Made by a program: the position numbers and the translations under genes
Part shown: in pieces, positions 29,615 through 33,516 of the stretch
How the letters are laid out: the number at the start of each line of letters is the position of its first letter
How positions within the stretch are numbered: position 1 is the stretch's first letter
The notes under the pieces: generated by a model
What the model was told of the DNA's origin: nothing
The model's input: only the letters and a program-made list of their open reading frames with translations
Databases searched by the model: none
DNA from: Rhizobium sp.
Lineage (GTDB): Bacteria; Pseudomonadota; Alphaproteobacteria; Rhizobiales; Rhizobiaceae
DNA length: 64,000 bases
Direction: 5' to 3'
NCBI GenBank assembly: GCA_003527225.1
Contig: DPXQ01000158.1
Location: 119,138 to 183,137, forward strand

Positions 29615-29639
29615 CTAGGGACGATTGGCCCTAGTTTTT
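29615..29639 (+). terminator. Intrinsic terminator of trxC
   Basis: CTAGGG (29615-29620) pairs with CCCTAG (29629-29634) around an 8-base loop, followed by TTTTT. It overlaps the stop codon of the convergent gene. Confidence 0.8.
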
Positions 29640-30044
29640 ATCCCGTTGCCCGTCGGCGGGGTAAAGGCCAAAAAGCGCGGCGCCATATCCGGTAAGTGCA
29701 CCCTCTTCAGCAAGCTGACTGGCAAGAATGCCATCCTCGGCGGCGAGCACCGGCCGCAAGAGCGAGACGGCTTCGAGAAAGCCGATGATTTCTCCGCGCC
29801 TTACCGGTCTCGGCAGCGATTTCTGCGTTTGGTCGCAAGGATGCTTGCTTCGGAAAATGCCGGCATGTGGCGCGGCAATGGTCGTCTGGCGGCGGGGGGC
29901 GGGGGGCGGCTCGTGCGTGGCGAGATCATGCACGTCATGCCTTGTCGCCAGAATATGCCGGTCGCCATCCTGGTATTCCAATTCGGCAAGCCCGTGTTTT
30001 TCGAGCAGGGCCATGACAGCGCTGAGCCACGTGGTGTCGGTCAT
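29631..30044 (-). CDS. Biotin-carrier-like protein lacking the biotinylated lysine
   Basis: 137 residues, last gene of the pxpA-accB-accC operon, overlapping accC by four bases (ATGA). The C-terminal ~70 residues align by eye with the biotinyl domain of the AccB two genes upstream: GTFYRAP becomes GIFRSKH, EGDLVEEGQTLALIEAMKMLNPV becomes RPVRRGEIIGFLEAVSLLRPV, and the last strand matches. The biotin motif AMKM is replaced by AVSL, so it cannot carry biotin. The frame is intact and codon use normal, arguing against simple decay. It may be a structural or regulatory subunit of the carboxylase. Confidence 0.8.
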   Translation of the reverse strand: MTDTTWLSAVMALLEKHGLAELEYQDGDRHILATRHDVHDLATHEPPPAPRRQTTIAAPHAGIFRSKHPCDQTQKSLPRPVRRGEIIGFLEAVSLLRPVLAAEDGILASQLAEEGALTGYGAALFGLYPADGQRDKN

Positions 30045-31399
30045 TTCGTCCTCCCGAAACCCTGTGCCTGCAATCTCTCAAGGTGGTGGATATCGAAGCC
30101 GCCGGCGAAAAATCCGGGTTCGCTCAGCAATCTTTCATGAAGGGGTATTGTGGTCGAGATTCCGTCGATCACGGTCTCGCGGAGTGCGCGCCGCATCCGG
30201 GCGATCGCGGTCGCCCGGCTATCGCCATGGGCGATCACCTTCGCGATGAGGGAATCGTAATTCGGGGGCACGCTGTAACCGGCATAGAGATGGGTATCGA
30301 CGCGGATGCCCGGGCCGCCGGGCGCGATCAGCTGCGTGATCCTTCCGGGGGAGGGAGCGAAGGTGAAAGGGTCTTCGGCGTTGATCCGGCATTCGATCGC
30401 ATGACCCGAAAACCGCACGTCGTCCTGCGCGAAGGAAAGGCTCTCGCCGCGTGCGACGCGCAACTGCTCCCGGACGATATCGATTCCAGTGACCTCTTCC
30501 GTCACCGGGTGCTCGACCTGAACACGTGTATTCATCTCGATGAAGTAGAATTCTCCATCCTCGTAGAGGAATTCGAATGTGCCCGCGCCGCGATAGCCGA
30601 TGGCAAGGCAGGCATCCGCGCAACGCCTGCCGATCCGCTCGATCGCCTCGCCGGCGATGCCGGGCGGGGGCGATTCCTCGATAAGTTTCTGGTGGCGCCG
30701 TTGCGTCGAGCAGTCGCGCGCCCCAAGATGCACGGCGTTTCCGTGATTGTCTGCCAGCACCTGGATTTCCACGTGCCGGGGATGCTCCAGAAATTTCTCG
30801 AGGTAGAGTTCCGAATTGCCGAAGGCGCGACCAGCCTCCTCGCGCGTCACTGCGACGGCACCGGCAAGCTCTGCGGCATTGCGAACGATGCGCATGCCCC
30901 GGCCGCCACCACCGCCTGCCGCCTTGACGATCAGCGGAAAGCCCGTTTGCACGGCGATCTGCATGATCTGAGCCGGGTCAGCCGGTAGTGCATGGTCGGG
31001 GCCGGGAACGCAGGGCACGCCGGCGGCGATCATCGCGCGCTTTGCCGCGACCTTGTCACCCATCATGCGGATGGCTGCGGCGGGCGGTCCGATGAAGGTA
31101 ATGCCGGCGTCTTCGACCATTTGCGCGAAGTCCGCATTTTCCGAAAGAAATCCGTATCCTGGATGAATGGCGCCGGCCCCCGTCATTTTCGCGGCGAGCA
31201 GAAGTTCACGCATGTCGAGATAGCTCCTGGCCGCCGGTGCAGGGCCGATGCAGAGCGCGGTATCGGCCAGTTTGACATGGCGCAGATCCGCGTCCGCCTG
31301 CGAATGGACGGCGATGGCCTTCAGTCCGAGGTCGCGGCAGGCCCGCAATATCCTCAGCGCGATTTCGCCGCGATTGGCAATGAGAACACTGTCGAACAT
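30041..31399 (-). CDS. Biotin carboxylase, AccC-like paralogue of the oxoprolinase locus
   Basis: 452 residues. It carboxylates biotin using ATP and bicarbonate. Order: N-terminal domain with VLIANRGEIALRILRACRDLG and HPGYGFLSENADF, the ATP-grasp glycine loop KAAGGGGGRGMRIV, EKFLEHPRHVEIQVLAD, and the catalytic FIEMNTRVQVEHPVTEEVTGIDIV. The ATG at 31399 gives the normal start MFDSVLIANRG. It lies four bases after accB in an operon with pxpA, so it likely serves a dedicated carboxylase rather than fatty-acid synthesis, although essential acetyl-CoA carboxylase cannot be excluded from sequence alone. Confidence 0.92.
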   Translation of the reverse strand: MFDSVLIANRGEIALRILRACRDLGLKAIAVHSQADADLRHVKLADTALCIGPAPAARSYLDMRELLLAAKMTGAGAIHPGYGFLSENADFAQMVEDAGITFIGPPAAAIRMMGDKVAAKRAMIAAGVPCVPGPDHALPADPAQIMQIAVQTGFPLIVKAAGGGGGRGMRIVRNAAELAGAVAVTREEAGRAFGNSELYLEKFLEHPRHVEIQVLADNHGNAVHLGARDCSTQRRHQKLIEESPPPGIAGEAIERIGRRCADACLAIGYRGAGTFEFLYEDGEFYFIEMNTRVQVEHPVTEEVTGIDIVREQLRVARGESLSFAQDDVRFSGHAIECRINAEDPFTFAPSPGRITQLIAPGGPGIRVDTHLYAGYSVPPNYDSLIAKVIAHGDSRATAIARMRRALRETVIDGISTTIPLHERLLSEPGFFAGGFDIHHLERLQAQGFGRTK

Positions 31400-31403
31400 G
31401 GCG

Positions 31404-31871
31404 TCAGTCCGCCGCATCGATGACGATCAGCGGCGTTCCGGTCGCAACCGGCGTCGCATCCGCGATCAGGATTGCAATGATCCGACCGGATTGGGGCGCC
31501 TCGACCGGATTGAGCATCTTCATCGCCTCGATCAGTGCGAGTGTCTGGCCTTCCTCCACGAGGTCGCCCTCGCTGACATAGGGCGCTGCATCGGGCGCGG
31601 GCGCGCGATAGAAAGTGCCGGGCAGGCCAGCTGGAACGGCGACCTCGAGACTGCCCTCATCCGCGGAAGGAAGCGCCATGAGCTCGGCGATCTCGGCGGC
31701 GGCCATAGCCTCGGGCGTTTCAGGACGCGACGACGTCGCAGATGCGGCGCGTGCCTCTCCGCGTGGCGTTTTGGAAAGCCTGATCCTTACGCCGTCCTCG
31801 GTGACCTCCAACTCGCCGAGGGCCGAGTTCTCCAACATTTCCATCAGCTTGCCGATCAGGATGAGATCCAT
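31404..31871 (-). CDS. Biotin carboxyl carrier protein, AccB-like paralogue
   Basis: 155 residues. An N-terminal helical segment (MDLILIGKLMEMLENSALGELEVTEDG) resembles AccB, an Ala-rich linker follows, and the C-terminal biotinyl domain has VPAGLPGTFYRAP and EAMKMLNPVEAPQSG, with the lysine of AMKM as biotin site. It lies 15 bases downstream of pxpA and immediately before accC. With PxpB/PxpC-type carboxyltransferase-like proteins across the promoter region, all parts of a biotin-dependent carboxylase are present. Confidence 0.92.
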   Translation of the reverse strand: MDLILIGKLMEMLENSALGELEVTEDGVRIRLSKTPRGEARAASATSSRPETPEAMAAAEIAELMALPSADEGSLEVAVPAGLPGTFYRAPAPDAAPYVSEGDLVEEGQTLALIEAMKMLNPVEAPQSGRIIAILIADATPVATGTPLIVIDAAD

Positions 31872-32663: not shown

Positions 32664-32796
32664 GATAGCCTCCATGTGACCGTCATCCTACGATCAATTC
32701 GCCGGTGGGAACAATCGCGATACGTCCATCCGGATCGACGTTTTTGGCATGTTTTTCCGATGGTGCCCGAGAAAAGTGATAGGCAAGAATGGCGAA

Positions 32797-32808
32797 CTGA
32801 TATATCAG
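32797..32808. promoter_or_regulatory. Palindrome CTGATATATCAG between pxpA and pxpB, candidate operator
   Basis: A perfect 12-bp palindrome in the 184-base gap between the divergent pxpA and pxpB operons. TGATATATCA-type dyads fit GntR-family (FCD) regulators. No regulator gene is in the locus, so the binding protein is unknown. Clear -10/-35 elements were not identified. Confidence 0.5.
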
Positions 32809-32847
32809 AGAGCGAAGACTGTAAATCATCAGGCTAATGCGGGAACG

Positions 32848-33516
32848 ATGCGCGAGAACGGCGGGAAACCGAGATTGAGCATGCAGGGCGCCGGGGCAAT
32901 CCTTGTCGATGCCGCCGGCTCCTTGTTCGACGACGCCTGTCAAGGGCGCATCTGGGCGCTGGCAACCGACCTCCGCAGCATTGCCGGCGTGTCCGAGACT
33001 GTTCCCGGCATGAACAATCTGATGGTTGTCTTCGATCCGCTTGTCCTTGACCCAACCGTGTTGGAGAGCGAGATCCTTTCCCGCTGGGGCCATATCGTAC
33101 CCAACCCCGGCCCCGGACGGACCATCGAAGTTCCGGTTGTCTATGGCGGAGAGAGCGGCGAGGACCTTGCTGCCCTCGCGCATTCCAAGGGAATGGACGT
33201 CGAAGAACTGGTGGCGCTTCATTCGGCCCCGCTCTATTCGGTCGCGGCCGTCGGCGCCATGCCGGGCTTCGTTTATCTCTCCGGACTCGACCCCCGTCTG
33301 GCCACCCCGCGCCGAGCTGTACCCCGGATGAAAGTTCCTGTCGGCTCCGTCATCATCGGCGGCGCGCAGGCGGGCATCATGCCGCTGACCGCTCCTTCCG
33401 GCTGGCACATCATAGGCACGACCGGCATGGCGCTCTTCGATCCCCATCGCGTGCCGCCTGCCGCCTTCCGTCCGGGAGACAGGATTCGCTTCGTGCCGGA
33501 GGATATCCGGCAATGA
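32848..33516 (+). CDS. pxpB: 5-oxoprolinase subunit B (KipI family)
   Basis: 222 residues. With PxpC it forms the carboxyltransferase-like, ATP-using part of 5-oxoprolinase, homologous to halves of urea amidolyase. Conserved blocks: the cyclophilin-like end with APSGWHIIGTT, the GAMPGFVYLSGLDPRLATPRRA motif, and VPVGSVIIGGAQAGIMPL. The ATG at 32848 (MRENGGKPR) is preferred to 32749, which reads through the promoter region. ATGA overlap with pxpC. Confidence 0.92.
   Translation: MRENGGKPRLSMQGAGAILVDAAGSLFDDACQGRIWALATDLRSIAGVSETVPGMNNLMVVFDPLVLDPTVLESEILSRWGHIVPNPGPGRTIEVPVVYGGESGEDLAALAHSKGMDVEELVALHSAPLYSVAAVGAMPGFVYLSGLDPRLATPRRAVPRMKVPVGSVIIGGAQAGIMPLTAPSGWHIIGTTGMALFDPHRVPPAAFRPGDRIRFVPEDIRQ

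What the first reader, a model, noticed from the sequence alone, without database searches (positions are those of the whole stretch)
29631..33516. Oxoprolinase subunits packed with a complete private biotin-carboxylase set
PxpA, PxpB and PxpC are 5-oxoprolinase in E. coli-like bacteria, which have no biotin enzyme beside them. PxpB+PxpC are homologous to the carboxyltransferase part of urea amidolyase, whose partner is a biotin carboxylase and a carrier. Here accC and a genuine AMKM carrier sit in the divergent operon directly across the promoter from pxpB/pxpC, with a second carrier-like protein. This suggests a split, biotin-dependent carboxylating hydrolase acting on a lactam or cyclic imino acid, either replacing ATP-only oxoprolinase or extending it to another substrate.
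Basis: partly seen in the sequence, partly recalled or inferred. Interest (0 to 1): 0.72.

Follow-up and report, generated by a model that had tools for sequence, protein, structure and literature searches.

The report
Biotin-linked oxoprolinase with dummy carrier
In this Rhizobium relative, genes for a ring-opening enzyme related to 5-oxoprolinase travel with their own biotin-carboxylating machinery, including a conserved 'dummy' carrier that cannot hold biotin, which suggests, but does not prove, that the ring is carboxylated before it is opened.

Summary
pxpA-accB-accC plus a second carrier face pxpB-pxpC. In 24 of 24 related loci pxpA, pxpB, pxpC and the second carrier co-occur, with accB in 23 and accC in 22. 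In 79 loci around stand-alone pxpC from 249 Pseudomonadota genomes, accC lies nearby in 20, in four parts of the PxpC tree. The linked AccC is an extra copy (15 of 15 genomes), and no AccA/AccD-type carboxyltransferase is near (13 of 13), so PxpBC is the only local candidate. PDB 9yx5 shows a mycobacterial PxpBC homologue bound to an acyl-CoA carboxylase complex.

The second carrier is the surprise: a BCCP fold without the biotinyl lysine in 34 of 34 copies; one genome fuses it to a true biotinyl domain. It resembles plant BADC subunits.

Best explanation: a split biotin-dependent carboxylase (PxpBC as carboxyltransferase) activates a lactam and PxpA opens it. Substrate and reaction are not shown. 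Against it: the catalytic lysine of urea carboxylase is arginine here, and acc-less PxpABC reportedly works alone (recalled). New variant of a known kind.

The parts
29631..30044 (-). pseudo-BCCP: second carrier, biotinyl fold with EAMKM replaced by EAVSL
30041..31417 (-). accC, biotin carboxylase, dedicated second copy
   Evidence: TIGR00514 691.1 vs 626.5 bits; 14 of 14 catalytic residues checked present; clade apart from rhizobial housekeeping AccC
31404..31886 (-). accB, biotin carboxyl carrier protein with EAMKM
   Evidence: PF00364; TIGR00531 114.6 vs 115.2, just under the cut-off
31887..32675 (-). pxpA (LamB/YcsF family), putative ring-opening hydrolase
   Evidence: NF003814 363.2 vs 226 bits, PF03746
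32676..32748 (.). divergent intergenic region (to about 32847 if pxpB starts at 32848)
32749..33516 (+). pxpB (carboxyltransferase subdomains C and D)
   Evidence: TIGR00370 183 vs 145.55 bits, PF02682
33513..34520 (+). pxpC (carboxyltransferase subdomains A and B)
34522..35763 (+). DadA-like FAD oxidoreductase, probably the same operon
   Evidence: PF01266; among the 24 related loci found only in L001
36511..37563 (+). proline-racemase-superfamily enzyme (motifs SSGSNS and DRSPCGTG)
   Evidence: PF05544; best NCBIfam NF047722 334.5, under its cut-off of 550; next to pxpC in 12 of 12 related loci of the window's gene order, L001-L011 and L021

Best explanation
The six proteins form one split biotin-dependent enzyme. 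AccC uses ATP and bicarbonate to carboxylate the biotin on AccB (inferred from intact sites). PxpBC acts as the carboxyltransferase and moves the carboxyl group to the ring nitrogen (or oxygen) of a lactam, 5-oxoproline or a hydroxylated relative (inferred). PxpA hydrolyses the activated ring and the resulting carbamate loses CO2, so the energy of ATP reaches the ring through carboxylation rather than phosphorylation (inferred). The pseudo-BCCP is a non-biotinylated partner of AccB that helps assemble the AccC-AccB core or dock it to PxpBC, as proposed for plant BADC subunits (inferred). Shown: gene content, conservation, folds, loss of the lysine, and a dedicated AccC lineage.
For: Set conserved in 24 related loci. 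accC beside pxpBC in 20 of 79 surveyed loci, in four parts of the PxpC tree and in several gene orders, including BC-BCCP fusions beside PxpB-PxpC fusions. 15 of 15 genomes have another AccC over the cut-off; window-type AccC is its own clade. No AccA/AccD-type domain near the cluster in 13 of 13 genomes. PDB 9yx5: a PxpBC homologue bound to a complex that holds AccA3. Pseudo-carrier without lysine in 34 of 34, and fused to a true biotinyl domain in L185. MSMEG_0435-0436 are induced under nitrogen depletion (PMC4617892, passages).
Against: The column of the likely general base of urea carboxylase (Lys1605 in K. lactis; PMC5770610, passages) is Arg in window-type and fusion-type PxpB, as in acc-less ones, so that residue does not mark carboxylation. 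PxpABC of acc-less bacteria is reported active alone (recalled). 59 of 79 surveyed loci show no accC nearby. accC is missing locally in L010, L011, L182, L184 and L185. 9yx5 shows binding, not turnover.
Confidence: 0.5

Rival explanations
1. Ordinary ATP-dependent 5-oxoprolinase: PxpBC phosphorylates 5-oxoproline and PxpA opens the ring; accB-accC are a spare acetyl-CoA carboxylase half that is merely co-regulated.
For: Phosphorylation by PxpBC is the current assumption (PMC13274462, passages). Acc-less PxpABC reportedly works when reconstituted alone (recalled). 59 of 79 surveyed loci lack accC nearby. Window PxpA and PxpB pass 5-oxoprolinase models.
Against: Several separate linkages and a dedicated AccC lineage; no AccA/AccD partner nearby; 9yx5; window PxpC is far under the 5-oxoprolinase equivalog cut-off, though 3 of 5 acc-less PxpC tested also fail it.
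Confidence: 0.2
2. A biotin-dependent carboxylase whose product is kept: PxpBC carboxylates a cyclic imino acid or amide for use elsewhere, and PxpA acts on the product or on another compound.
For: Same gene evidence as the best explanation. Neighbours act on imino acids by family: proline-racemase superfamily, and an Ldh_2-family dehydrogenase in L013. 11 of 15 genomes hold a second accC-pxpC pair, which suggests more than one substrate.
Against: PxpA accompanies the acc-linked PxpBC in each lineage, which fits ring opening or hydrolysis downstream.
Confidence: 0.12
3. PxpBC binds the biotin carboxylase complex as a regulator or scaffold, without carboxyl transfer; the pseudo-carrier is part of that regulation.
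For: 9yx5 shows binding only. The base is Arg, not Lys. Plant BADC proteins have been called inhibitors by some groups and assembly glue by others (PMC11926652, passages).
Against: The cluster keeps a true carrier and an AccC with intact catalytic residues of its own, which a mere regulator of the housekeeping enzyme would not need.
Confidence: 0.1

Closest known systems
PxpABC prokaryotic 5-oxoprolinase (E. coli YbgJ/YbgK; B. subtilis KipI/KipA/YcsF)
   Different: Own accC, accB and pseudo-carrier; PxpC under the 5-oxoprolinase equivalog cut-off (297.6 vs 500)
Urea carboxylase / urea amidolyase (biotin carboxylase + carboxyltransferase + BCCP)
   Different: Split into separate genes, Lys to Arg at the likely general base, partner PxpA instead of allophanate hydrolase
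M. smegmatis long chain acyl-CoA carboxylase complex with MSMEG_0435-MSMEG_0436 bound (PDB 9yx5)
   Same: A PxpC/PxpB homologue pair in one entry with a biotin carboxylase subunit, AccA3
   Different: Shared acyl-CoA carboxylase rather than a dedicated AccB/AccC; its paper was not found in the held library, and the function of the bound pair was not seen here
Plant BADC subunits of plastid acetyl-CoA carboxylase
   Same: BCCP relatives that lack the biotinylation motif and bind BC and BCCP (PMC11926652, passages)
   Different: Bacterial, encoded beside pxp genes; no BADC sequence was compared here; the paper calls BADC unique to the plant enzyme

Membership tests
PxpABC 5-oxoprolinase | PxpA, PxpB and PxpC families all present together | tested here: met
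PxpABC 5-oxoprolinase | PxpC over the equivalog cut-off of NF045499 | tested here: not met
   297.6 vs 500; of 10 others tested, 2 acc-less ones (L064, L065) pass with 560 bits and 8 fail, 3 acc-less ones among them, so the model is strict
PxpABC 5-oxoprolinase | ATP-dependent opening of 5-oxoproline | not testable with these tools
   needs an assay
Urea carboxylase | over the TIGR02712 cut-off as one polypeptide | tested here: not met
   PxpC 167 and AccC 471.1 vs 1303.85 bits; genes are split
Urea carboxylase | catalytic Lys of the carboxyltransferase (K. lactis Lys1605) | tested here: not met
   Arg in the window; Lys in 8 of 8 readable bacterial urea carboxylases, out of 23 rows tried
Biotin-dependent carboxylase (general) | biotin carboxylase with intact catalytic residues and a biotinylatable carrier | tested here: met
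   residue list recalled
Biotin-dependent carboxylase (general) | a carboxyltransferase that uses carboxybiotin | tested here: inconclusive
   homology and fold to the urea carboxylase carboxyltransferase, but the Lys is changed and no activity is known
BADC | BCCP-like fold without the biotinylation lysine | tested here: met
BADC | descent from the plastid BADC lineage and binding to BC-BCCP | not tested
   no BADC sequence was compared; a parallel origin is likely (inference)

The most novel reading that the evidence does not exclude
PxpBC proteins are a family of biotin-dependent lactam carboxyltransferases: carboxylation, not phosphorylation, activates the ring for PxpA. Some lineages keep dedicated BC and BCCP subunits, others borrow the housekeeping or acyl-CoA carboxylase ones. 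The rhizobial branch has evolved a bacterial counterpart of plant BADC, a dedicated pseudo-BCCP.
Probability: 0.35. Interest if true: 0.82.

Novelty: new variant of a known kind. Interest (0 to 1): 0.62.

Why it matters
How PxpABC couples ATP to ring opening is described as an assumption in a 2026 paper (PMC13274462, passages). If PxpBC proteins are carboxyltransferases, many genes named 5-oxoprolinase or allophanate hydrolase subunits are mis-described, and extra 'acetyl-CoA carboxylase' copies would find a use; one such extra BC-BCCP copy, in a strain that also has pxpB and pxpC, was read as lipid metabolism (PMC12427679, passages). A conserved biotin-less carrier in bacteria would also give a small system for asking what such dummy subunits do.

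Tried and rejected
Rejected: accC as the only ACC subunit. Rejected: the second carrier as a second active biotin carrier. Rejected: window PxpBC as a urea carboxylase proper. Tried without a clear answer: the catalytic lysine as a marker of acc-linked PxpB; it is Lys only in the short-accB clade (7 of 7 rows, the acc-less L072 among them) and in urea carboxylases.

Surveys. The class-wide search with the pseudo-carrier profile (126 of 289 genomes at 1e-6) mostly returned true BCCPs: of the 30 loci given back, 29 carry an MK motif and one (L142, the L001 locus) does not; the other matches were not read. The order-wide search gave 9 of 249 genomes at 1e-14. Seven matches lack the lysine (G001, G072, G124, G608, G687, G692, G730); G748 is a true-pseudo fusion; the G726 match is a true BCCP, with a separate pseudo-carrier downstream. 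Fixed 8 kb flanks can miss more distant acc genes.

Tree caveats. One search had two housekeeping rows on the wrong strand and was redone; in both, 12 pxp-linked rows were left out as near-duplicates. HK_L025 comes from a 4.6 kb contig of a MAG and may be a contaminant. One search left out 14 of the 24 related loci (103 rows kept), uses SH-aLRT only and warns of long branches that meet, the fusion clade and L136 among them; 8 of 23 urea carboxylase rows were readable; the rest were mis-framed or on the wrong strand and were ignored.

Literature: ten full-text searches listed no paper that I recognised as proposing biotin dependence of PxpABC or a bacterial BADC; I saw listings and starts of abstracts, not all these papers, and most subscription papers and preprints are not held. 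PMC3199775 section 8 (read whole) notes the split carboxyltransferase genes as often adjacent and unstudied.

Full report
WHAT IS THERE. The window belongs to a Rhizobium/Allorhizobium relative: the five nearest relatives of the second carrier (83-90% identity) include MAG proteins labelled Allorhizobium and Rhizobium. No whole genome is held for it. On the minus strand lie pxpA, accB, accC and a 137-aa protein, head to tail; on the plus strand pxpB, pxpC, a DadA-like FAD enzyme, an interrupted SDR gene and a proline-racemase-superfamily enzyme. AccC has 14 of 14 catalytic residues checked (list recalled) and AccB has EAMKM.

CONSERVATION. One scan with PxpC gave 24 rhizobial-type loci. pxpA, pxpB, pxpC and the pseudo-carrier are in 24 of 24, accB in 23 (L017's stretch ends inside accC) and accC in 22 (absent locally in L010 and L011). 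Among 249 Pseudomonadota genomes, 83 have a PxpC or urea carboxylase-type domain at 1e-30. Of 81 stand-alone matches (open frame under 900 aa) I fetched 79, leaving out L001's own locus and a contig-end fragment in G021. accC lies within about 8 kb in 20 of 79. The 17 genomes hold 8-14 BC-type matches each, so chance would give about two; this is rough arithmetic, and the 20 are not independent. On a PxpC tree (103 rows) the acc-linked ones fall in four places: the window clade, L096, a clade of pxpB-pxpC fusions beside BC-BCCP fusions, and a clade with a short accB. The set also recurs in other orders: accB-accC-pxpB-pxpC-pseudo-pxpA (L183, L186), accB-accC-pseudo-pxpB-pxpC-pxpA (L106), and pseudo-accB-pxpA facing pxpBC without accC (L182, L184). 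In the order-wide search 9 of 249 genomes gave a strong match, and each of the 9 holds a pseudo-carrier or a pseudo domain, so the pseudo-carrier is not common.

A DEDICATED ENZYME WITHOUT ANOTHER CARBOXYLTRANSFERASE. I gave 17 of the 24 loci: 15 of 15 genomes with the linked accC have another AccC over the cut-off; G010 and G011, without a linked accC, have one each. The window-type AccC forms its own clade (12 rows, 97*), apart from 7 of 8 housekeeping rows (99*); the eighth, L025, sits nearer the pxp type and may be a contaminant. AccA/AccD-type domains (PF01039) are on other contigs in 12 of 13 genomes and about 400 kb away in the other. In 11 of 15 genomes a second accC-pxpC pair lies elsewhere, for example accC at G010:C7:52716 and pxpC at G010:C7:55030; the one in G001 (L069) is of the short-accB type. 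This hints at different substrates.

RESULTS AGAINST. The column of K. lactis Lys1605, called most likely the general base (PMC5770610, passages), is Lys in 8 readable bacterial urea carboxylases and in the short-accB clade, but Arg in window-type, fusion-type and shown acc-less PxpB and in 9yx5. That residue therefore does not separate acc-linked from acc-less PxpB. PxpABC of acc-less bacteria is reported to work when reconstituted alone (abstract of Niehaus 2017, recalled; not held). The C. glutamicum paper treats PxpBC as phosphorylating, as an assumption. 59 of 79 surveyed loci show no accC nearby. L081 has a weak pseudo-carrier match but no acc gene in the stretches fetched.

MECHANISM. 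I think that AccC and AccB charge biotin, PxpBC transfers the carboxyl group to a lactam, PxpA opens the ring and CO2 leaves. The pseudo-carrier most likely assembles or docks the AccC-AccB core. Only gene content, folds, conservation and the lost lysine are shown. The neighbours suggest cyclic imino acids such as hydroxyproline-derived lactams: the proline-racemase superfamily next to pxpC in 12 of 12 loci of the window's gene order and further off in 6 of 12 Mesorhizobium loci, Ldh_2 in L013, a DadA-like enzyme in the window and L001. The racemase relatives fall below the cut-offs of the named families, so no substrate is assigned.

VERDICT. Real, conserved and more than a neighbour effect; a new variant built from known parts. 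Interest 0.62.

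Noticed in passing
window 35784-36496 (+): An SDR dehydrogenase gene is split between two reading frames (35784-36308 and 35909-36496), so it is interrupted by a frameshift in this sequence; real or a sequencing error is not known.
   Followed up: partly
window 36511-37563 (+): Proline-racemase-superfamily enzyme with Ser (SSGSNS) where the first catalytic Cys is expected and Cys (DRSPCGTG) at the second (motif meaning recalled); below the cut-offs of all NCBIfam models matched.
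   Followed up: partly
L069, L070, L071, L074, L077, L080: A second, different acc-pxp lineage with a short carrier (77-93 aa where seen) next to accC and a PxpB that keeps the urea-carboxylase Lys; 11 of 15 rhizobial genomes hold an accC-pxpC pair apart from the window-type cluster.
   Followed up: partly
L084, L091, L092, L099, L100, L102, L103, L104, L108, L114, L121: pxpA beside a pxpB-pxpC fusion and a long accC; the four whose C-terminus was read (L084, L091, L099, L103) end in a biotinyl domain with AMKM.
   Followed up: partly
L010, L011, L182, L184, L185: Relatives that keep the carriers and pxpABC but have no accC in the stretch read; they form one clade on the PxpC tree (99*), as if accC was lost once and another AccC is borrowed.
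   Followed up: partly
L185 7995-8540 (-): Natural fusion of a true biotinyl domain and a pseudo domain in one 181-aa protein.
   Followed up: yes
L004: Record titled Arenimonas sp. MAG carries a locus that looks rhizobial (scpC 91%, accC 78% to the window); probably mis-binned or mis-named.
   Followed up: no
window 28761-29099 (-) and 29066-29602 (+): A small ArsR-like regulator overlaps the start of a thioredoxin-like gene on the other strand (names by reading the sequence, no family search).
   Followed up: no
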